DNA of 64,000 nucleotides from Kalmanozyma brasiliensis GHG001 (Eukaryota > Basidiomycota > Ustilaginomycetes > Ustilaginales): assembly GCF_000497045.1 (NCBI RefSeq), contig NW_015961957.1:310001-374000 (forward strand). Reading direction: 5' to 3'. The notes beneath the pieces are model-generated. The model had not been told where the DNA came from. It saw nothing but the letters and a program-made list of their open reading frames with translations, and did not search any database. Position numbers and translations under genes: made by a program. Shown here in pieces: positions 1 to 11,853 of the stretch (position 1 is the first letter of the stretch; each line of letters opens with the position of its first letter).

Positions 1-1947
1 GGAAACACACCAAAATTCCAAATCTCACCGCCGCTTTCCCACCGATTGGTTGTGTCTCAGATGGTTGTGGTCTCACTTTCGGCACTACACACTCATTGTA
101 GTGCGAGAGGATTCGAACTCTTCGCGCATTCAACCCTTCTCGCCCTTATCGGGTGGCAAAGGTGTTTGTATTGGTGAGCTCTTCGCCCTAGCTGACAAGT
201 TGCAAACTCGCTTTCGGCTGATTGGCTGTTTTGGGCCTCTTCGCCTCCGGCGTGTTGGACCTCGCTTCGGCTGTGTGAACGCTTTGTTTCCGCATCTGTA
301 TCAGAAGTCGGATCGCTCAGAGACTGCAGCTCGATCCACCCGATCGGGGCGATCTTCCCACTTTCGTTTGCCACCCATGCCCACGCAGCTTGGGAGAGAC
401 TCTTCCAGCTTGATGCGCCCACGCATGCAGCCACGCAAAACGGCCAGGTCAACGTCGTGAAATCGAGAACAGGCCACGTCTTGTTATTCTTATCGGGCTA
501 CTTGCTACTAGTGGATCCGTGGTATCACTAGCGCGCACGTGACGGAGCTCATGCGAACACTGACGCCAACCCCGATGTCTTCGACCAGGTCCGAGTGCAG
601 GTCTGAGCTCATGAAGCCAGGTGCAGCTCGCCATAAAGATGAGGATCAGGGCCTAGCGGCAGCACTAGTGAGAGGCAGCTTCATGTGATCAGGGCCCTGG
701 CTAGCCACGATGCCATACGACAGCGGATACTGCGTTGGCGGTGGCATGCTGTTTGATGCATTGGCTAACGACTAGCGAGACAGGCCCGAACGTGAGGCAT
801 GCGGCCAAGTGTCATTCTCAGCTGTCCCATTGATGGATCAGCCAAGACAGCAATGCATCTCATGGTCGAGCCCCTCGATCAGCAGCGGGACGTTGCTCGA
901 CACCATCACCATGCATCACCCACCACAAGTCCATCATGGAAGTCGCACTTCGAACCCTGGGCGCGATTGACAGACGCCAACGTGTTCAGCGCTTCATCTC
1001 CTCCCAATGCCACCAAGTCGGAGGCTCTTGGCACGAGCTCGACTGTCTTTGTGACGAGTGTCAGCGACAACAAGGTGCGTTGCCCTCGTCGGCTCCGGTT
1101 TGTCTCGTTCGCAGGCTGACTCTCGCCCCTCCTGATCTTTGACTCGCAGTGCTCGGACTGCGAAGGGTTCGTCGCAAGGTGCCGCGCAATGCTCGAACCT
1201 CCTTAAGCGAACAGGCACGAGCACGCGGAACCGAGCTCGATGGTGAGGGCAACGACTCAAGCGTGACACCCCGGCCTAGGCGCCATCGCGTCGACGAAAA
1301 TGCCATGAGAGGAGAGAGCAAGATCGGAAGAGCCGCACGGCTGAGGCCTGGTAGGATCACGTTGCCTCCCCAAAGGCCGGCGAAGGTACCTGTGGGAGGT
1401 GAGGGTGACGTTGTTGAGCTGAAGCCGCATGCAAATGCGCCGACTCGACCAGACGCGGACGACATGCGGCTTGAGGACGTCAACGAATGCACCGAAGAAG
1501 AAGGAGCAGAAAGCAGCTGGAACAGCGACGAACATTCCGAACACTCGAACGACGTGCATCGAGCAGCAAAGCGCGAGAGACGCATTACGGAGCCTCCTCA
1601 GGCCGCAAATCAGGAAAATGGCCGAGGGAGGGACTATACGGAGCACTACGTCAACGACTTCTTCACCCGCAATCCGGCAGCCAAGGCGAACGGCTGGTTG
1701 GCACTTCCTCACCATCGCATGATTCCGAATCGAGCGGAGAGAGAAGGACGAGAGTCGGTCATCGATCGTGCTGCTCGTGGATTGATCAAGGCTCAAGAGT
1801 CCCGGCTAGTCGGATTGCTGCCGAAGCTGAGCTGTAGGAGGTCCCGACACAGCGGCGACAAGCGTCGTCCATGAAACGCAACGGAGGAGCCAATGGAAAG
1901 CAGATTCTATGACGTGTTCTATGAATGGTGTGCTTGAACGAGTGTGT
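1..1947. other. Intergenic region, no convincing gene
   Basis: No ORF here matches a family I recognise. The longest is a plus-strand open stretch at 1150-1874 (about 241 codons, Arg/Glu-rich). It could be joined to an upstream exon ending at 1074 through a GTGCGT...CAG intron (1075-1149), but opposite-strand frames of 170-180 codons overlap it, so in this GC-rich DNA it may be chance. A hairpin near 82-127 contains a T-loop-like ATTCGAA but has no matching D-arm or 5' acceptor strand. Confidence 0.4.
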
Positions 1948-3195
1948 TCATACCAGCTTCTCCTGCGGATCCTCCGACTTGATCTCTTTTTCCACCGTAG
2001 ACCACCCGAGGAAGCGATACAGCCCGTCCCACACTTCAGGCTTGCATCCCATCGCCAACAGCATCACCGCCGGAAGATGAATCAAGCTCACCCAGAAACA
2101 CCACCTCGCCGCCTTGACCGTCTTTTCCCGGTAGAACTTCCACGCCGCATGCGCCATCAACAGGTTCAACGGCGTACTGAGCACGGCGAACGCTACAGGG
2201 CTCACGATCCCACTCAGCGGCACCATGACCGTGCAGATGGGCAGCAGCGCCACCGCGTACCTGAGCGACACCCTTCGGTTGAGCGCCGGATCGACCACCG
2301 CCATCATTCGGTATCCTCCCCGCGCGTACTCGGCACGCAGCGTGTGGGCGAGCGAGTTGAAGTGCGGGAATTGCCATGCGAACAGCAGCGCTGCGAGCGA
2401 CCAGCCTCCCAGATCGGCGGACGTGAAGAGCGTGCCCGTGCAAGCTGCCCAACCCATGAGCGGAGGCAGGGCACCGACGACAGCGCCAACCCACGTGTTG
2501 GCGATCGTACTCCGCTTCATCGGCGTGTAGGTGAACGAGTAGAGGACGACGTTGGCTGCGCCCAGTGCGGCGGTCAAGGGGTTGACCATGGTGGCGAGCA
2601 GTCCGACTCCGGACGCGGCGGACGCCGAGGCGAACGTGAAGGCGTGCAGCGGTGTGACGGAGCGAGATGGGAGTGGGCGGGCTCGTGTACGTTGCATCTG
2701 GGCGTCGTAGGGCGACTCGACAAGCTGGTTGAGCGCGTTTGCTGCGGCCGAGCAGAGCGTCATGCCGGCAGTGAGGGCGAGCAAGGTCGTGACGGGCGAA
2801 GCGACGGCTACGGTGAGCGACGCCGGGCACAGAGCGTAGCCAGCCATACCAGTGAGCACAACCAAGAAGGTGAGACGTGACTTTGACAACTGCTTGTAAA
2901 GCTTCGGCAACGTCGCGGTGGTGAGGGGAGGCACAGGTCGATAAGCAGAGAATGACGTGGAGGGCTCCCGTGATCGCAGACCACCGAGTGTGCGCAGATC
3001 GACAACGGTGGGATCGTCGGAGAGCGGCGCGAAGGATGTCGCGTCGACAGCAGCTTCAACTTCAGCCTGCGCAGGTGCGGCTGGAGCAGAAGGAACCGTC
3101 GAAGGAGCGGCCATGACGGCAGATCTGCTCGCAGAGGTGCTGAACGATCGACGACCATCCGAGGTAGACGCGACCAGCGGTGCTCGTCCGTGGAC
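1948..3195 (-). other. COX10: Module 3 of fusion ORF: Cox10 heme O synthase
   Basis: Residues 1123-1537. The segment GRRSFSTSASRSAVMAAPS looks like a mitochondrial presequence, but no Met precedes it within the module. The first Met (M1150, at 3112-3114) lies after it. The core is a UbiA prenyltransferase with the first Asp-rich motif NQLVESPYDAQMQRTRARPL (about 1276-1295), followed by SFTYTPMKRSTIANTWVGAV and alternating hydrophobic helices, and the conserved WQFPHFNSLAHTLRAEYARG loop. It farnesylates heme B to heme O for cytochrome c oxidase in the inner membrane. The lack of its own start codon ahead of the presequence-like segment is the strongest argument that Cox10 is translated as part of the fusion. 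Confidence 0.9.
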
Positions 3196-6100
3196 CTTGG
3201 TTCGCAGCGTCCTGTACGTGCTCCAGATCGCGTCACCGTCCACGTAGCAGCCTTTGAGCCAACGCTTGACCTCGCCCTGCTTGCTTTCGTCCCATTCGAA
3301 CCCCTTTCTCGAGTGCAGCACGCGCCTGTTGTCGAAGATGACACACTCTCCCTCCTCCATCTGCTTCTCGTACCTGAATTCCTCGGCCAGCGTGAGATCC
3401 GAGAAGCGTTTCAGAGCGCGGTAGAAGGTCTGTCGTTGCTCTGACGTCTGGAGATGCTCGGTCGGGTGCAGCGGGATAGGCGACTGGAAGGGAGGCGAGT
3501 AGTTGACAGCGCTGAGCCTGGGCATACTTGTTCCAGCCAAAGGACCACCTGCGTGCCCCTCTGTGTCATGAGCCAGCTCGAAGGTCGGGTGCGTGAACCT
3601 GTAATGTCTGCCATCGTTGACGTAGTGGAATCCGACCGGGACCTTGGTAAGCACTTCCCAAAGCTCACGATCCTCCTCGTACATGCGCTCGGCCACCTTG
3701 AAGCTGTCGACAAAGATGCTGGCACCACCGCGCACCTTGTTCCTCAGCATGTGGAGGAACTGGAAGCGAGGTGGGTTTTGGAAGTAGAGCAGATCCATAT
3801 GAAGTCCAAGATCAAGGTTGGTGTAGGCGATGTTTCGGGCGTCCGCCTTGGACTGAACGTCCCAAAGCAGGCCGTAGAAGGTATTGCGTAGCTCGCCCAT
3901 GGTGTTGGCGAGATCACGAAGACGGGCAGACTGTGGGCCTTCTTCGGTGGATGTCGTGTCGGTGGGCAGGCGAGTCACAAATGCAAATCCATCGCGGACT
4001 ACAGCCTCGGTGAGCGCGTACAATGCCTTGGTGCGGTCAGCATCATTGGATGACGCTTCGTCGGGTCGGATGGCGTCCCAAGGGATACGGGCGGGTCGAG
4101 CAACGGCACCACTTGCGAGAGCATCGGCGGACAGAGGTGCGTCAGGAGACCACGGCTTCGTCTTGAAGTGCGTCAGATCCTTGGCAGCCCAGCCTTCGGA
4201 CACCGCCATGACGTCCATGTGCGTGTCTGCATAGAAGGTGTCGATGGCATGACGAAGCAGAAAAGGGATGGGGTAGTCCGAGACGTGCGGAGCGTCGGCT
4301 TGCTTGACCTCGCCGAACGTGACGGTGAACGCATTGACGACAGCGTGCTCCTTAGCAAAAGTGAGACGAAGTGCTGGCTCATCGCCAGAGGTAACGATCT
4401 TTGGAGGGTGGCTGGGATCGAGCAGTGCGACATCGAGCGGGACATCGCTGGTGTGAAAGAGCTTTTGACGATTGCTCGGATGCACTGATTGCTGCGCTTG
4501 ACAGGCATCGCGCAGCCAGACGTGGTCCAATTGGAAGGGCTGCAGGCCTAGCTGCTGCGATTCGATCGTGAGGCCGTCCGGAAGCAGTCGGATGATCACG
4601 TCGGAATTTGCAACACGTAGCTCTTGAGCATGCTCGCGGGCAAGACACGCCGTTGAGCTCAGCTGACGGCCGAAACCAACACTTGTCGCTGGAGCTGCGA
4701 TACCGTGACGACCCTGAGCATGCTGCTTGGCAGCTCTTTGTGATGCTGATGCGGTGTAGAGACCGGCAGTGGCAACAGTTGGAGCATGACTTGAAAAGTG
4801 ACGGCGCAGGTCACGGCAAGCCCGACGGCCAGCTGCTCCAAGGCGACTGTTGGGCTTGAGGAGCATGATTGGCAAGACGGAGAGAATTCGACCCTCGGTA
4901 GCCCAACCGAGCGCAGCAGAGGCTGGCGGGTTTCCAGCGTTGACAGGCTGACTACTAGCCGCTGCCTTGGCTGCCTCGTCATCCCTGGTGAGGTAGTCGG
5001 CGATGGCGAGGTTGGCAGCGACGATGGCGGCGATGCCAAACACGAGGAACAAACTGCGTCTTGTGGCATCCCACTTGACATTCTGCTCGATCTCGGTCTT
5101 GAGATCCGAGAGACTGATGGTGAAACGATTGTTGAGATCCTGGATCTCCTGCTCCAAATTGTTTTGTTCGCCCTTGGACTCGGCTTTGCGAGTGCTCATG
5201 TCCACCTGGATGTCGTGCTTGAGGCGCTCGACGTCTTCCTTCATCTTCTGCTCGAGCGCGTCGACTTCGCGTTGAAGAAGTGTGGTGATGCTGCGGAGTC
5301 CAGCAGCATCGTTCCTGCCTCGCACTTGAACCTCGGTGCGAATCTCTGACAGGGCGGCCTTGAAGAGGTACGCTTGATTCTCGACGTCGCTCTTGTTGAG
5401 GCAGGCGTGAGCAAGCTGTCGACCTCGGGTGGTGATGAGGTGTCGAACACCTTCCATGATGGCCTCTGCCGGATCGTGGCGACGCGCAATCTGTAGCTGA
5501 AGCTCTTGGGCGGCTGGCTCGGTCTGCGCTTGCTTGCCCTTTCCTGCCTTTGTGCTGGCTCCGCCGCGCTGAGTCTTGGCGGCGGCAGAGATCCAGCCGC
5601 CGGTTTCCAATCGCTTGACAAAGCCATGCGTGTCGAAGGGGACCTGCAGACTTTGCAGGGACTGCGATGATGCAGGACGATGCAGTCTGGGATCGAAATC
5701 GATGTCGCCAGGACCGCTGCTGGATGCTGTTGTCGTCGTCTGCGAAGCTCCCGAACTATCCGAGGTAGTACCTGATGAGCTTGCGCCCTGTTGCAAAGGA
5801 TCTGGCGATGCGGAAGACGATGATGCTGCGTTGCCGGTAGTCTCAGGAGGGATGATGCGCTGATCAGAACCAGGTGTGCTGAAGGACGGGTGTAGGTTTG
5901 CTGCAGGGTTGGGCGGAGAGGTGAGACCAGAGAAGACCCTTTTGTTCTGCTCCTGAGCGTGGAAGAAGCGCTGCTTCAACAGGTCCTCGCCTGTGACAGG
6001 GCCTGTGCTGGCTGGAGGAGTGCTGGCGCTCGGCTGAGCCTGCTGCTTGGATGAGGCATCCTGCTTCTCGTTCTCTGCTGGAGTTTCTTGCTGCCGCGAA

Positions 6101-6561
6101 GACGACGCCTGCTCAGATGCGGTGTTTGCAGCAGAGGGAGACGAGGGCGCGCTCGCGGTGTTGGGGGCCTGCTTTGTGCTTTGCGCTGCCGCATCAACCT
6201 CGAGCACTGTTTCGGCTTCAGGCGTGCGGGAAGTAGTGTCGGCCTTGTTATCAGACGACTGATTGTTCCTGCTGTCGGTCACCTTCACGGAAGGGCCCGC
6301 GTTCGCCTCGCCCTCTGTAGTGCTGCCAGCGCCAGAGGTGCGCGTCGCCCTGCCTTTAGAAGAGGCACTCGCTCTCAGCGCCGAAGATGTAGAAAGATGG
6401 AGCCTCTGAGCGGGGCTGAAGAGTCTTGAGCGGCGCGGGTGATGAAAGAGATGACGCGGCAGAGAATGCCTGTGCGGTATGGTGAATCGGCGAGATAGCT
6501 CGGCAGCCGCCTGCTTCGAAAGCAAGGCCGCGGTCTTACAGCCTGCGCCCGTCAAGCCCAT
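1948..6561 (-). CDS. Tripartite mitochondrial fusion ORF: DUF1640 protein + 2OG dioxygenase + Cox10
   Basis: One uninterrupted 1537-codon frame begins at an ATG (6559-6561) and carries three unrelated mitochondrial protein families end to end. Residues 1-80 look like a presequence (Arg/Ser-rich, RLHLSTSSALRAS). Residues about 308-523 are a DUF1640 (Fmp32/MCUR1/CCDC90-like) coiled coil plus one membrane segment. Residues about 645-1122 are a gamma-butyrobetaine/trimethyllysine dioxygenase-type 2OG oxygenase with iron ligands H921, D923 and H1083. Residues about 1150-1537 are protoheme IX farnesyltransferase (Cox10) with the prenyltransferase aspartate motif near 1276-1292. Presequence-like segments lie at both internal junctions (RRHFSS 586-591, RRSFSTS 1137-1143). 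I see no consensus splice donor at either junction. It could be a processed polyprotein, or three genes that happen to share an open frame. The frame is certain; the product form is not. Confidence 0.85.
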   Translation of the reverse strand: MGLTGAGCKTAALLSKQAAAELSRRFTIPHRHSLPRHLFHHPRRSRLFSPAQRLHLSTSSALRASASSKGRATRTSGAGSTTEGEANAGPSVKVTDSRNNQSSDNKADTTSRTPEAETVLEVDAAAQSTKQAPNTASAPSSPSAANTASEQASSSRQQETPAENEKQDASSKQQAQPSASTPPASTGPVTGEDLLKQRFFHAQEQNKRVFSGLTSPPNPAANLHPSFSTPGSDQRIIPPETTGNAASSSSASPDPLQQGASSSGTTSDSSGASQTTTTASSSGPGDIDFDPRLHRPASSQSLQSLQVPFDTHGFVKRLETGGWISAAAKTQRGGASTKAGKGKQAQTEPAAQELQLQIARRHDPAEAIMEGVRHLITTRGRQLAHACLNKSDVENQAYLFKAALSEIRTEVQVRGRNDAAGLRSITTLLQREVDALEQKMKEDVERLKHDIQVDMSTRKAESKGEQNNLEQEIQDLNNRFTISLSDLKTEIEQNVKWDATRRSLFLVFGIAAIVAANLAIADYLTRDDEAAKAAASSQPVNAGNPPASAALGWATEGRILSVLPIMLLKPNSRLGAAGRRACRDLRRHFSSHAPTVATAGLYTASASQRAAKQHAQGRHGIAAPATSVGFGRQLSSTACLAREHAQELRVANSDVIIRLLPDGLTIESQQLGLQPFQLDHVWLRDACQAQQSVHPSNRQKLFHTSDVPLDVALLDPSHPPKIVTSGDEPALRLTFAKEHAVVNAFTVTFGEVKQADAPHVSDYPIPFLLRHAIDTFYADTHMDVMAVSEGWAAKDLTHFKTKPWSPDAPLSADALASGAVARPARIPWDAIRPDEASSNDADRTKALYALTEAVVRDGFAFVTRLPTDTTSTEEGPQSARLRDLANTMGELRNTFYGLLWDVQSKADARNIAYTNLDLGLHMDLLYFQNPPRFQFLHMLRNKVRGGASIFVDSFKVAERMYEEDRELWEVLTKVPVGFHYVNDGRHYRFTHPTFELAHDTEGHAGGPLAGTSMPRLSAVNYSPPFQSPIPLHPTEHLQTSEQRQTFYRALKRFSDLTLAEEFRYEKQMEEGECVIFDNRRVLHSRKGFEWDESKQGEVKRWLKGCYVDGDAIWSTYRTLRTKVHGRAPLVASTSDGRRSFSTSASRSAVMAAPSTVPSAPAAPAQAEVEAAVDATSFAPLSDDPTVVDLRTLGGLRSREPSTSFSAYRPVPPLTTATLPKLYKQLSKSRLTFLVVLTGMAGYALCPASLTVAVASPVTTLLALTAGMTLCSAAANALNQLVESPYDAQMQRTRARPLPSRSVTPLHAFTFASASAASGVGLLATMVNPLTAALGAANVVLYSFTYTPMKRSTIANTWVGAVVGALPPLMGWAACTGTLFTSADLGGWSLAALLFAWQFPHFNSLAHTLRAEYARGGYRMMAVVDPALNRRVSLRYAVALLPICTVMVPLSGIVSPVAFAVLSTPLNLLMAHAAWKFYREKTVKAARWCFWVSLIHLPAVMLLAMGCKPEVWDGLYRFLGWSTVEKEIKSEDPQEKLV
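3196..4866 (-). other. Module 2 of fusion ORF: GBBH/TMLH-type 2-oxoglutarate dioxygenase
   Basis: Residues 566-1122. M566 (4864-4866) could itself start a protein, because it is followed by an Arg-rich segment and RRHFSS. The N-terminal domain keeps WLRDAC, matching the WLRDNC motif of gamma-butyrobetaine and trimethyllysine dioxygenases, but the second and third zinc cysteines of the CxCxxC pattern are Ala and Ser (CQAQQS). The catalytic jelly-roll has GLHMDLLYFQNPP (H921, D923) and FDNRRVLHSRKGFEW (H1083), the usual HxD...H iron triad followed by the oxoglutarate-binding Arg. The domain ends in GCYVDGDAIWSTYRTLR, typical of the family C-terminus. Carnitine biosynthesis is the likely pathway. 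Which of the two hydroxylation steps it catalyses cannot be decided here; a mitochondrial signal favours trimethyllysine dioxygenase. Confidence 0.8.
4867..6561 (-). other. Module 1 of fusion ORF: DUF1640 coiled-coil inner-membrane protein
   Basis: Residues 1-565 of the fusion. After a presequence and a long Ser/Thr/Ala/Gln-rich disordered segment (about 80-300), the conserved part opens with FDTHGFVKRLETGGW, continues through an alpha-helical coiled coil rich in E/K/L (about 370-495) and ends with the membrane segment SLFLVFGIAAIVAANLAIAD (about 501-520). This order is that of the DUF1640 family (yeast Fmp32, animal MCUR1/CCDC90B), inner-membrane proteins implicated in cytochrome c oxidase assembly and calcium uniporter regulation. 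Family members normally end shortly after the membrane segment. Here the frame continues for another 1000 codons. The disordered N-terminal half is longer than usual for the family. Confidence 0.8.
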
Positions 6562-9612: not shown

Positions 9613-11853
9613 ATGAACCCCAACGCTCGCAGCTTCGGCTTCAACCCCAACGCCTCGGGCTTTACGCCTGGTGGACCACCGCAGCAGGGTCAGCAGCAGC
9701 AAGGTGGTGCTCCTTACGGTCAGCAGGGTGGCTACTACCAGCAGGGTTTCGGTCAGCAGCAAGGCCAGCCACAGCAGGGCTTCAACGGCGGCTACCCCAA
9801 CCAGCAGTATCAGCAGTACCAGCAATATCAGCAGCAGCAGCCCTACGGCGGTGGCTACGCTCAGCAAGGGTTCAACCAGCAGGGCTTTGGCCAGTACGCC
9901 CCGCAGGGCTTCAATGGTCTGCCCGCTCGCCCCGCCGCATCGGGATCGAGTCAGCCTTCTGTCGAAGCAGCTGCATCTGCCGCTGACGCTGCTCCGCGCA
10001 AGCCTGTGAGCATCTCGATCGGCGGTGGTGCCAAGCCTGCCGCTCCTTCCAGTTCGGACGCTCCACGAAAGCCCGTCAGCATCTCCATCGGAGGTGGCGC
10101 CAAGCCAGCTGCTCCTGCCGCCGACAAGTCGGACGCACCTCGCAAGCCCGTCAGCATCTCCATCGGCGGTGCCAAAAAGCCAGAAGCCGACAAAGACGAC
10201 TCCGCGGCCTCAGCACCTGCCCCCGCCGCAGCTGCTGCGGACAAGCCAGCACAACCTGCAGCCGTCGCCGCCGTCAAGAACGCCGAGGCGCCCTCTTCCA
10301 CAACTGCAACAGGCCCTTCGTCTCGCGCCGAATCGCCAGCACCGGCGGCCAAGACCGAGTCCAAGGTGGCCTCGCTCTCCTCCAAACCTGTCCCCACAGA
10401 ACGCGCCACCACCAACGCCGACCAGATTCTCGCCGAGGCCAGCAAGGTCACCGACGAAGAGACGCTCAAGGACCTCTTTGGTGACAAGAGCGACGAGCTC
10501 AAGTCGCACTTGAATATTGTCTTTATCGGCCACGTCGATGCTGGCAAATCCACCATGGGTGGCAACCTGCTCTTCCTCACCGGCATGGTGGACAAGCGAA
10601 CGATGGAAAAGTACGAGCGCGAGGCCAAGGAGGCCGGGCGAGAGTCGTGGTACCTCTCGTGGGCGCTCGACTCGACGGCACAGGAGCGCGAGAAGGGCAA
10701 GACGGTCGAGGTGGGCCGTGCTTACTTCGAGACGGGCAAGCGTCGTTACACCATCCTCGATGCGCCAGGACACAAGTCGTTTGTGCCCAGCATGATCAGC
10801 GGTGCGGCCCAGGCCGATGTGGCCGTTCTCGTCATCTCGGCGCGAAAGGGCGAGTTCGAGACCGGTTTCGAGCGAGGTGGACAGACGCGCGAGCACGCTG
10901 TGCTGGTCAAGACCGCCGGTGTGCAGCGTCTCATTGTGGTGGTCAACAAGATGGACGAGTCGACGGTGCAATGGCAAAAGTCGCGCTACGAGGAGATCCA
11001 GGGCAAGCTCACCCCTTTCCTGCGTTCGGCCGGTTTCAACCCCAAGACGGACCTCACCTACATTCCCGTCTCGGCGTACGCCGGGCAGAACCTCAAGGAG
11101 CGTGTGCCCAAGAGCGTCTGCGACTGGTACGACGGTCCGGCGCTGCTCGAATACCTCGACAACCTCGAGCTGGGCGACCGCAAGATCTCGGCGCCGCTCA
11201 AGATGCCCATCTCAGAAAAGTACAACGACATGGGCACGGTGGTGGTGGGCAAGCTCGAGGCGGGCAAGATCAAGAAGGGCGACTCGCTGTTGCTGATGCC
11301 TAACAAGGTGACCGTCGAGGCGGTGGCCATCTTCAACGAGCAGGAGGAGGAAGTGCCGGCGGCCATCTCGGGTGACAATGTGCGTGTCAAGCTCAAGGGT
11401 GTTGACCACGAAGAGGTGACGGTGGGCCACGTGCTCACGGATCCGACCAACCCGGTGCACGTCGCGACGCACTTTGAGGCGCAGCTCGCGATTCTCGAGC
11501 ACCGCAACATCATCTGTGCCGGGTACAGCGCCGTGGTGCACTGCCACACGGTCTCGCAGGAGGCCAACCTCGCGGCGCTGCTGCACTACTACGACAAGAA
11601 GACGGGCAAGAAGAGTCGTCGTGGACCCCAGTTCGCCAAGAAGGGCATGAAGATCATTGCGCTCGTCGAGCTCGCTGGACCCATTTGTGTGGAGAGGTTC
11701 AAGGACTACCCGCAGCTGGGTCGCTTCACGCTCCGAGACGAAGGTCGCACCGTTGCGATTGGTAAGGTCACCAAGTTGATCACGTCGGCGGACGAGTTGC
11801 CGGACGTGGCCAAGTTGAGCGTCAGTGATGCTGCCGCTGCTGCTGCTAGCTAA
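9613..11853 (+). CDS. SUP35: Translation termination factor eRF3 (Sup35)
   Basis: Intronless, 746 residues. Residues 1-20 hold FGFNPNASGFTPGG, which fits a PAM2-like poly(A)-binding-protein motif (L/F-N-x-x-A-x-x-F-x-P). Residues about 20-105 are a Gln/Gly/Tyr-rich prion-like domain (QQYQQYQQYQQQQPYGGGYAQ). Residues about 125-190 hold three copies of APRKPVSISIGG, followed by an Ala/Pro/Lys/Glu-rich M region. The GTPase domain begins near 300: GHVDAGKST (G1, about 306), REKGKTVEVG (G2), DAPGH (G3, about 384), NKMD (G4, about 446), followed by the two beta-barrels typical of eRF3/Hbs1. With eRF1 it promotes GTP-dependent peptide release at stop codons. The ATG at 9613 is well placed and the family N-terminus begins there. 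Confidence 0.97.
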   Translation: MNPNARSFGFNPNASGFTPGGPPQQGQQQQGGAPYGQQGGYYQQGFGQQQGQPQQGFNGGYPNQQYQQYQQYQQQQPYGGGYAQQGFNQQGFGQYAPQGFNGLPARPAASGSSQPSVEAAASAADAAPRKPVSISIGGGAKPAAPSSSDAPRKPVSISIGGGAKPAAPAADKSDAPRKPVSISIGGAKKPEADKDDSAASAPAPAAAAADKPAQPAAVAAVKNAEAPSSTTATGPSSRAESPAPAAKTESKVASLSSKPVPTERATTNADQILAEASKVTDEETLKDLFGDKSDELKSHLNIVFIGHVDAGKSTMGGNLLFLTGMVDKRTMEKYEREAKEAGRESWYLSWALDSTAQEREKGKTVEVGRAYFETGKRRYTILDAPGHKSFVPSMISGAAQADVAVLVISARKGEFETGFERGGQTREHAVLVKTAGVQRLIVVVNKMDESTVQWQKSRYEEIQGKLTPFLRSAGFNPKTDLTYIPVSAYAGQNLKERVPKSVCDWYDGPALLEYLDNLELGDRKISAPLKMPISEKYNDMGTVVVGKLEAGKIKKGDSLLLMPNKVTVEAVAIFNEQEEEVPAAISGDNVRVKLKGVDHEEVTVGHVLTDPTNPVHVATHFEAQLAILEHRNIICAGYSAVVHCHTVSQEANLAALLHYYDKKTGKKSRRGPQFAKKGMKIIALVELAGPICVERFKDYPQLGRFTLRDEGRTVAIGKVTKLITSADELPDVAKLSVSDAAAAAAS

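What the first reader, a model, noticed from the sequence alone, without database searches (positions are those of the whole stretch)
1948..6561. Three mitochondrial proteins in one 1537-codon ORF: candidate processed polyprotein
A single ATG-initiated frame with no stop links a DUF1640 inner-membrane protein, a carnitine-pathway 2OG dioxygenase and Cox10. I know of no described fusion of these three. Fungal mitochondria do process polyproteins (yeast Arg5,6), so a presequence-peptidase-cleaved precursor is plausible. Two of the three modules (DUF1640/Fmp32, Cox10) are tied to cytochrome c oxidase, so co-production could have a purpose.
Basis: partly seen in the sequence, partly recalled or inferred. 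Interest (0 to 1): 0.88.

Follow-up and report, generated by a model that had tools for sequence, protein, structure and literature searches.

The report
Three-part mitochondrial polyprotein of smut fungi
In smut fungi and their relatives one long gene frame encodes three proteins, predicted to work in mitochondria, joined end to end by linkers that look like import signals, where the mitochondrion's own processing enzyme likely cuts them apart; the described examples of such joined precursors appear to have two parts, not three.

Summary
Order: CCDC90-like/DUF1640 membrane protein, gamma-butyrobetaine-dioxygenase-like enzyme (GBBH), Cox10 heme O synthase. It is no artefact: 16 database proteins (one from this species) have the same three parts, from three orders of Ustilaginomycetes; their GBBH parts form one clade (98/98). 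In Malassezia and Tilletia GBBH is a separate protein.

The linkers diverge (29-35% mean identity; modules 78-86%) yet keep the published MPP/Icp55 cut motif: 33 hits in 2,251 linker residues, 4 in 20,923 elsewhere. In most sequences the GBBH-side motif sits where part of the stand-alone GBBHs carry theirs. Linker 2 has no start codon before its motif in 14 of 16 sequences, and this is the genome's only Cox10 over the family cut-off. Likely mechanism: import as one precursor, cut by MPP into three. Cutting itself is not shown.

New: three parts, two of them membrane proteins, conserved over three orders, and other fusions of the same partners in Exobasidiomycetes (Cox10 behind an Mmu163-like protein; GBBH behind HMG-CoA lyase). 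New variant of a known kind.

The parts
1948..6561 (-). whole open frame, 1,537 codons plus stop (ATG at 6561, stop 1948-1950)
   Evidence: same three-domain protein in 16 database proteins, one of them this species' own
6322..6561 (-). aa 1-80, predicted N-terminal presequence of the precursor
   Evidence: 3.1% D+E, 15.5% R+K; presequence-like amphipathic 18-mers in 13 of 16 sequences; published cut motif in only 1 of 16 here
5014..5637 (-). module 1: CCDC90-like/DUF1640 domain, aa 309-516
   Evidence: PF07798, 157.9 bits; 86% mean pairwise identity over aa 301-527 in 16 sequences
4999..5055 (-). the only strongly hydrophobic stretch of module 1, aa 503-521, predicted transmembrane segment
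   Evidence: Kyte-Doolittle 2.37 over 19 residues
4621..4881 (-). linker 1, aa 561-647: internal presequence-like linker
   Evidence: 3.6% D+E, 14.9% R+K; 35% mean identity; 13.7% of 18-mers presequence-like; pLDDT mostly under 50 with one helix at aa 572-591
4789..4803 (-). RHFSS, aa 587-591: first predicted MPP/Icp55 cut motif of linker 1
4654..4668 (-). RQLSS, aa 632-636: second predicted cut motif, 47 residues before the DHVWLRD block of the dioxygenase
   Evidence: 12 of 23 stand-alone GBBHs carry a loose form of the motif 39-47 residues before the same block
3199..4620 (-). module 2: gamma-butyrobetaine-dioxygenase-like 2OG/Fe(II) dioxygenase, aa 648-1121 (TauD domain 847-1106 = 3244-4023)
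   Evidence: H921, D923, H1083 and Y896, W900, Y913, Y1106 the same in 16 of 16
3034..3198 (-). linker 2, aa 1122-1176: internal presequence-like linker
   Evidence: 4.8% D+E; 29% mean identity; published motif in 12 of 16
3136..3150 (-). RSFST, aa 1138-1142: predicted MPP/Icp55 cut motif before Cox10
   Evidence: no Met before the motif within linker 2 in 14 of 16 sequences
1951..3033 (-). module 3: Cox10, heme O synthase (protoheme IX farnesyltransferase), aa 1177-1537 (UbiA domain 2086-2823)
   Evidence: TIGR01473 over cut-off; only match over that cut-off in this genome

Best explanation
This is one open frame, found in three orders of the class Ustilaginomycetes, that encodes three proteins in a row, and the chain is likely imported into mitochondria as a single precursor and cut by the matrix processing peptidase (MPP, then Icp55) at two presequence-like linkers into a DUF1640 membrane protein, a GBBH dioxygenase and Cox10. 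Shown by sequence: the open frame, its conservation in 16 sequences, the fast-evolving basic linkers with the cut motif, the lack of a start codon ahead of the Cox10-side motif in 14 of 16, and that the dioxygenase is a separate protein in the neighbouring classes. Inferred: translation as one chain, import, and cutting. Linker 1 is likely the old presequence of the dioxygenase, kept inside the chain as a ready-made cut site after the fusion; linker 2 likewise for Cox10. For MPP to reach linker 1, the membrane segment of module 1 would have to pass into the matrix (or the internal presequence would have to re-enter) instead of arresting import; this is untested.
For: Same three-domain chain in 16 of 22 hits, one being this species' own; orders Ustilaginales, Urocystidales and Violaceomycetales. 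Linkers 35% and 29% mean pairwise identity against 86, 78 and 85% in the modules. Published motif RX(F/Y/I/L)(S/A)(S/T) (PMC8847149, passages): linker 1 in 13 of 16, linker 2 in 12 of 16, both in 10 of 16; 33 hits per 2,251 linker residues against 4 per 20,923 outside (N-terminal 80 left out); 0 of 10,000 shuffles reach it for either linker. Control: in 98 other Cox10s and 116 other GBBHs the motif is commoner in the first 100 residues (1.73 and 2.59 per 1,000) than in the rest (0.30 and 0.33), and the linkers have 14.7. A loose motif lies 47 residues before DHVWLRD in 10 of 16 fused proteins, 51-65 in 4 more; 39-47 in 12 of 23 stand-alone GBBHs examined. No Met before the linker 2 motif in 14 of 16; Met566 in 10 of 16. 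Only match over the Cox10 cut-off in the genome. Both linkers mostly under pLDDT 50, with a helix just before RHFSS (low-confidence model).
Against: No cleavage product, peptide or transcript was seen. The strict published motif is missing from linker 1 in 3 of 16 (P0013, P0014, P0015) and linker 2 in 4 of 16 (P0005, P0007, P0011, P0013); looser forms reach 16 of 16 in both linkers but also occur in 16 of 16 in the aa 81-300 stretch, 15 of 16 in CCDC90 and 16 of 16 in GBBH, so they are not specific. The sequences are related, so shuffles overstate independence. Of 23 stand-alone GBBHs, 11 do not have even the loose motif at the matching place, among them Acaromyces, Exobasidium and Ceraceosorus. 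The N-terminal presequence itself has the motif in 1 of 16, and only 14 of 98 other Cox10s and 30 of 116 other GBBHs have it in their first 100 residues. Third-position GC is lower in the linkers (0.47, 0.51) than in the modules (0.69-0.78). At least one presequence-like window also occurs in GBBH (14 of 16) and Cox10 (13 of 16), and in linker 2 in only 10 of 16. A membrane segment ahead of linker 1 could stop import. The K. brasiliensis public model splices out most of the N-terminal presequence.
Confidence: 0.85

Rival explanations
1. The chain stays whole: a trifunctional inner-membrane protein in which DUF1640 and Cox10 tether the dioxygenase to the membrane.
For: One frame in all 16 three-part proteins; no cleavage product is shown; all three modules are conserved.
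Against: Linkers are poorly conserved while a processing motif persists in them; in most fused sequences its place matches the presequence site of part of the stand-alone relatives; membrane sidedness is awkward, because yeast DUF1640 proteins face the matrix and Put7's C-tail may reach the intermembrane space (PMC7519068, passages), which would put an uncut dioxygenase outside the matrix.
Confidence: 0.06
2. The frame is shared but the proteins are made from separate transcripts, by internal promoters, internal starts or an alternative first exon.
For: A Met (aa 566) precedes the presequence-like part of linker 1 in 10 of 16 sequences, probably the old start of the dioxygenase.
Against: That Met is replaced in 6 of 16; linker 2 has no Met before its motif in 14 of 16 and none at all in 5 of 16, the nearest upstream Met in those 14 lying 67 or more residues back inside the dioxygenase; no GT[A/G]NG donor or CT[A/G]A[C/T] branch word in either linker of the window. 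Separate transcripts would put no pressure on keeping the junctions stop-free and in frame. A remote first exon cannot be excluded.
Confidence: 0.05
3. Only one junction is cut, for example DUF1640 is released and the dioxygenase stays joined to Cox10, or the reverse.
For: The strict motif is absent from one or both linkers in 6 of 16 sequences.
Against: With T/H/A variants each linker has a motif in 16 of 16, though these variants also occur inside modules; both linkers have similar composition and low conservation.
Confidence: 0.1
4. Assembly or gene-model artefact, or a sequencing error that removed stops.
For: One fragment (P0038) has what looks like an out-of-frame stretch in linker 2 (by eye), and the K. 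brasiliensis model has an odd intron.
Against: 15 proteins besides this species' own keep the same three-part frame, including residues just before linker 1 (W553, A554, E556, G557, R558 invariant).
Confidence: 0.01

Closest known systems
Arg5,6 of Saccharomyces cerevisiae (MPP-cleaved tandem precursor; Friedl et al. 2020, itself not held, known here from passages in PMC8847149 and PMC8835746)
   Same: Several mitochondrial enzymes in one nuclear-encoded precursor with an internal MPP site
   Different: Two enzymes, of one pathway (recalled); here three proteins of apparently unrelated pathways, two of them membrane proteins, with internal sites predicted and none shown
Etp1 and Rsm22-Cox11 of Schizosaccharomyces pombe (listed in PMC8847149)
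   Same: Fungal composite precursors that include a cytochrome c oxidase assembly or heme A pathway protein
   Different: Two parts and other partners. Etp1 is recalled as Cox15-ferredoxin; a passage of PMC7140478, citing the etp1 paper, instead describes a Yah1-Arh1 tandem fusion, a discrepancy I could not settle
Put6/Fmp32 and Put7 of yeast, MCUR1/CCDC90B of animals (DUF1640)
   Same: Module 1 belongs to this Pfam family and has one predicted membrane segment
   Different: Those are stand-alone; K. brasiliensis also has a stand-alone paralogue on contig C25
Cox10 behind an Mmu163-like protein in Microstromatales and unnamed close relatives (P0017-P0019, P0023-P0028)
   Same: Cox10 at the C-end of a two-part chain with RRx[FY][AST]T in the linker in 8 of 9
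   Different: Other partner, which is a separate gene in K. brasiliensis (C24:39129-40028); only 4 of 9 linkers fit the strict published motif

Membership tests
MPP-processed mitochondrial tandem precursors (Arg5,6 type) | two or more mitochondrial proteins in one open frame | tested here: met
   mitochondrial location inferred from the families
MPP-processed mitochondrial tandem precursors (Arg5,6 type) | internal presequence-like stretch with MPP cut motif between modules | tested here: met
   strict motif in linker 1 in 13, linker 2 in 12, both in 10 of 16; looser, unspecific variants in 16 of 16
MPP-processed mitochondrial tandem precursors (Arg5,6 type) | N-terminal presequence | tested here: inconclusive
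   composition and amphipathic windows fit (13 of 16), motif in 1 of 16
MPP-processed mitochondrial tandem precursors (Arg5,6 type) | MPP-dependent internal cleavage into separate proteins | not testable with these tools
   needs import assay or N-terminomics
Cox10 / heme O synthase | TIGR01473 over the curated cut-off | tested here: met
   258.2 bits against 210.3
Gamma-butyrobetaine dioxygenase (TIGR02409) | score over the curated cut-off | tested here: not met
   200.7 bits against 414.75, although the best of the three related models; filed only as GBBH-like
Gamma-butyrobetaine dioxygenase-like 2OG oxygenases | iron ligands HxD...H and aromatic cage positions (roles recalled) aligned to human GBBH 4bg1/3ms5 | tested here: met
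   alignment; the same in 16 of 16
CCDC90-like / DUF1640 (PF07798) | Pfam score over cut-off plus one membrane segment near the domain's end | tested here: met
   157.9 against 33.5; hydropathy peak 503-521
2A/StopGo polyproteins | NPGP skip motif at junctions | tested here: not met
   absent from all 16 sequences

The most novel reading that the evidence does not exclude
Ustilaginomycotina use mitochondrial polyproteins as a standing gene-organisation habit: because each mitochondrial protein brings its own MPP site, neighbouring genes can fuse without loss, and Cox10 and GBBH have done so with at least three different partner sets (DUF1640-GBBH-Cox10, Mmu163-like-Cox10, HMG-CoA lyase-GBBH), the first being a three-product precursor whose internal membrane segment is carried through the import channel.
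Probability: 0.4. Interest if true: 0.78.

Novelty: new variant of a known kind. Interest (0 to 1): 0.64.

Why it matters
Eukaryotic genes are expected to make one protein each. The review passage read here lists Arg5,6, Atp25, Etp1, Rsm22-Cox11, SPAC22A12.08c and rice RPS14 as tandem or composite mitochondrial precursors (PMC8847149); as far as I recall all are two-part. A three-product precursor conserved across orders of a fungal class would be a clear natural case of MPP working like a polyprotein protease, and it poses a sharp import question: how a membrane segment in the middle of the chain avoids arresting translocation before the downstream presequence is reached. It also offers a layout tested by evolution for building mitochondrial polyproteins, and it probably explains why stand-alone dioxygenases of Malassezia, Tilletia and Ceraceosorus are named heme O synthase or Cox10 in databases.

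Tried and rejected
Rejected: artefact (15 other three-part proteins); 2A skipping (no NPGP in 16 of 16); conserved internal start codons. Pfam listed five families for the chain at E up to 1, none an intein.

Led nowhere or weak: a loose cut motif proved unspecific, so the published form was counted as printed; the position comparison with stand-alone GBBHs still uses the loose form. The Pfam Mmu163 family does not reach its cut-off in P0019 (E 0.0075), was not listed for P0017, P0018, P0024, P0026 or P0028, and has no match over cut-off in the own genome, so 'Mmu163-like' is a weak label; the homologous stand-alone gene was found with the P0018 protein instead. Malassezia sp. CBS 17886 Cox10 (P0037, 842 aa) has a LYR-like N-terminal match under its cut-off (24.6 against 26.8 bits, E 3.7e-5) in one species only; not counted. 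AlphaFold of aa 551-1537 gave mean pLDDT 58.7, used only as weak support for disordered linkers; no fold search was run. DNA of related fungi was not available, so synonymous-site and synteny tests were not done and the order of these genes in outgroups is unknown.

Rows dropped before counts: P0001 (same species as the window), P0038 (fragment) and P0017-P0022 (not three-part) from the 16-sequence set. Five of the 16 are unnamed, so they are called sequences, not species; P0012 and P0016 lack some stretches. Searches listed only the best 120 of 285 and 264 hits, and in all three protein searches only the candidates sharing most words were scored. From, 23 stand-alone GBBHs were examined for motif position (P0162 had no anchor block) and 22 put in the tree with 8 agaric sequences of my choice.

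Literature: searches bearing on whether this fusion or its kind is in print showed no title or abstract start on a DUF1640-GBBH-Cox10 fusion; some searches listed only 20 of 30, 1,273 and 38 papers, and only open-licence PMC papers are searched. Friedl et al. 2020 is not held. Of the papers cited I saw passages only.
Full report
WHAT IS THERE. The frame reported at 1948-6561 exists, on the minus strand: ATG at 6561, stop at 1948-1950, 1,537 amino acids, with an in-frame stop 15 codons upstream of the ATG. Pfam gives three domains in order, CCDC90-like/DUF1640 (309-516), TauD-type dioxygenase (847-1106) and UbiA prenyltransferase (1247-1492); NCBIfam identifies the last as heme O synthase above its cut-off. 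The window is Kalmanozyma brasiliensis: a public protein (P0001) is identical over its length, and taxonomy places the species in Ustilaginales.

IT IS A CONSERVED FRAME, NOT AN ACCIDENT. A search with the whole protein returned 22 hits; 16 (P0001-P0016, P0001 being this species' own) hold all three domains in one chain. Named species are Sporisorium reilianum, S. graminicola, Pseudozyma hubeiensis, Ustilago hordei, U. loliicola, Moesziomyces antarcticus, Melanopsichium pennsylvanicum, Testicularia cyperi, Thecaphora frezii and Violaceomyces palustris, plus K. brasiliensis; five more are unnamed. Taxonomy look-ups give Ustilaginales (Kalmanozyma, Testicularia), Urocystidales (Thecaphora) and Violaceomycetales (Violaceomyces); the other genera were not looked up. 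For counts I used 16 sequences: the window and P0002-P0016. Mean pairwise identity is 86% (CCDC90), 78% (dioxygenase), 85% (Cox10) but 35% and 29% in the two linkers. Residues just before linker 1 (W553, A554, E556, G557, R558) are invariant, so the chain is read past the membrane segment. The whole-protein search accepts only lengths of 0.55-1.75 times the query; the searches for shorter proteins (best 120 listed each) showed no separate Cox10 or GBBH from a named Ustilaginomycete.

ORIGIN. The dioxygenase is a separate protein in Malassezia (Malasseziomycetes) and in Tilletia, Ceraceosorus, Acaromyces and Exobasidium (Exobasidiomycetes; Exobasidium's class is recalled). In a midpoint-rooted tree of 50 rows the 16 fused dioxygenases form one clade (98/98) next to a set that holds the Exobasidiomycetes (90/85). 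Separate Cox10 proteins of 536-610 aa are listed for Tilletia. The simplest history is one fusion in the stem of Ustilaginomycetes.

THE LINKERS ARE PRESEQUENCE-LIKE AND CARRY CUT MOTIFS. Linker 1 (aa 561-647) and linker 2 (1122-1176) have 3.6% and 4.8% acidic residues against 13.5-14.5% in the two other modules (Cox10 itself has 4.5%). The published consensus for MPP followed by Icp55, RX(F/Y/I/L) cut (S/A)(S/T) (PMC8847149, passages), was applied as printed. It occurs in linker 1 in 13 of 16 and linker 2 in 12 of 16, in both in 10 of 16; 33 hits in 2,251 linker residues against 4 in 20,923 residues elsewhere (N-terminal 80 excluded), and no shuffle of 10,000 reaches the observed number for either linker. 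As a control, in 98 other Cox10 and 116 other GBBH proteins the motif occurs 1.73 and 2.59 times per 1,000 residues in the first 100 residues and 0.30 and 0.33 in the rest; only 14 of 98 and 30 of 116 have it in the first 100. The 16 sequences are related, so shuffles exaggerate; but those farthest from the window share only 12-24% (linker 1) and 5-29% (linker 2) identity with it (P0013-P0016), and still have RNFHT, RQLHS, RPLHA or RHLSS in linker 1 and RGYHT, RMFST, RGFST or RSLST in linker 2. Against: P0013, P0014 and P0015 miss the strict form in linker 1, and P0005, P0007, P0011 and P0013 in linker 2; allowing T, H or A brings both to 16 of 16, but that looser form also occurs in the aa 81-300 stretch (16), CCDC90 (15) and GBBH (16). 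The predicted N-terminal presequence has the strict motif in 1 of 16.

THE CUT SITE IS WHERE MANY STAND-ALONE RELATIVES HAVE THEIRS. Using a loose motif, in 10 of 16 fused proteins it lies exactly 47 residues before the DHVWLRD block of the dioxygenase, and in 4 more 51-65 residues before it. Of 23 stand-alone dioxygenases examined, 12, from Malassezia, Tilletia and unnamed sources, have the motif 39-47 residues before the same block, now near their N-termini; 9 have none (Acaromyces, Exobasidium and Ceraceosorus among them), one has it 81 residues away and one lacks the block. This is what one expects if linker 1 is the dioxygenase's former presequence, with the motif drifting in some lineages.

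NO SEPARATE START FOR COX10. Linker 2 has no methionine before its motif in 14 of 16 sequences; in those the nearest one upstream is at least 67 residues back, inside the dioxygenase. Met566 at the head of the presequence-like part of linker 1 is present in 10 of 16 and replaced in 6, as if it were a former start codon no longer needed. In this genome the frame holds the only match over the heme O synthase cut-off; the second UbiA hit is below it. If the fungus respires with heme A, functional Cox10 must come from this frame (inference).

HOW IT LIKELY WORKS. Inferred steps: one mRNA, one precursor of roughly 165 kDa, import led by the N-terminal presequence, MPP cuts at linker 1 (two motifs, at 587-591 and 632-636) and linker 2 (1138-1142), Icp55 trims one residue, and three mature proteins result. 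Yeast DUF1640 proteins face the matrix, and Put7's C-tail may reach the intermembrane space (PMC7519068, passages); so for MPP in the matrix to see linker 1, the 503-521 segment would have to be imported through, or the internal presequence would have to re-enter. This is the least certain step. The structure model of aa 551-1537 has low confidence overall (58.7) but shows most of both linkers below pLDDT 50, with a helix at 572-591 ending at the first motif.

WHAT THE PARTS DO. The dioxygenase keeps the iron ligands and the aromatic positions aligned with human gamma-butyrobetaine dioxygenase (the same in 16 of 16; roles recalled), but misses that family's curated cut-off (200.7 against 414.75), while a stand-alone paralogue on contig C25 passes the trimethyllysine dioxygenase cut-off (341.7 against 268.3). 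The genome has five TauD-family matches in all. So the fused one is a good candidate for the carnitine-forming step, unproven. Module 1 is one of two DUF1640 matches in the genome, as yeast has Put6 and Put7.

A WIDER PATTERN. Nine Cox10 proteins (P0017-P0019, P0023-P0028; three named, all Microstromatales) are fused to a different N-terminal protein, which in one of them weakly matches Mmu163. The linker holds RRx[FY][AST]T in 8 of 9 and the strict published motif in 4 of 9; the form with T allowed gives 8 hits in 1,426 linker residues against 0 in 5,295 others (first 100 residues excluded). That partner and HMG-CoA lyase are separate genes in K. brasiliensis. Three unnamed proteins (P0141, P0147, P0153) join HMG-CoA lyase to the dioxygenase with RHAST or RYAST/RQAST in between, which does not fit the published motif; they form their own clade (100/97) inside the Exobasidiomycete set. 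Thus the same two proteins have entered different chains more than once; whether this is selected or simply tolerated, because a presequence is a portable cut site, is open.

PRECEDENT AND NOVELTY. Internal MPP cleavage of a composite precursor is established for Arg5,6, and internal signals and MPP sites were predicted for Atp25, Etp1, Rsm22-Cox11, SPAC22A12.08c and rice RPS14 (review passage, PMC8847149; original not held). The searches listed no paper on this fusion, within capped lists and open-licence papers. It is a new variant of a known kind: three parts, two membrane proteins, apparently unrelated pathways, conserved over three orders.

Noticed in passing
P0148, P0150, P0152, P0155, P0160 (Malassezia); P0158, P0159 (Tilletia horrida); P0139 (Ceraceosorus): Stand-alone GBBH-like dioxygenases with only a TauD domain are named 'heme o synthase', 'Protoheme IX farnesyltransferase' or 'related to cox10' in public records, probably by transfer from the fused smut protein.
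   Followed up: partly
P0017-P0019, P0023-P0028: A second composite Cox10: an Mmu163-like protein fused in front of Cox10 in Microstromatales and unnamed relatives, with RRx[FY][AST]T in the linker in 8 of 9.
   Followed up: partly
P0141, P0147, P0153: HMG-CoA lyase fused in front of the GBBH-like dioxygenase, with R-x-A-S-T in the linker; own clade within the Exobasidiomycete set; species unnamed.
   Followed up: partly
P0037 (Malassezia sp. CBS 17886): An 842-aa Cox10 with a LYR-motif-protein match under its cut-off in the N-terminal part; could be a third kind of Cox10 fusion or a gene-model error.
   Followed up: no
window 5727-6539 (minus strand): The public K. brasiliensis model (P0001) treats 813 nucleotides of the frame as an intron with a GTAAG donor; the 15 other sequences carry protein in that stretch, so it is probably a prediction error.
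   Followed up: partly
P0038: A fragment of the fused protein from an unnamed source with what looks by eye like an out-of-frame but still open stretch inside linker 2, either a sequence error or a compensated frameshift.
   Followed up: no
window 1321-1333 (+): The 13-base word AGATCGGAAGAGC (start of a common sequencing adapter, recalled) occurs once in the window and once in the genome, here; one copy in 17 Mb is close to chance.
   Followed up: partly
window 9613-11853 (+): A 746-aa frame that reads as translation release factor eRF3/Sup35 with a Q/G-rich N-terminal part; by eye only.
   Followed up: no
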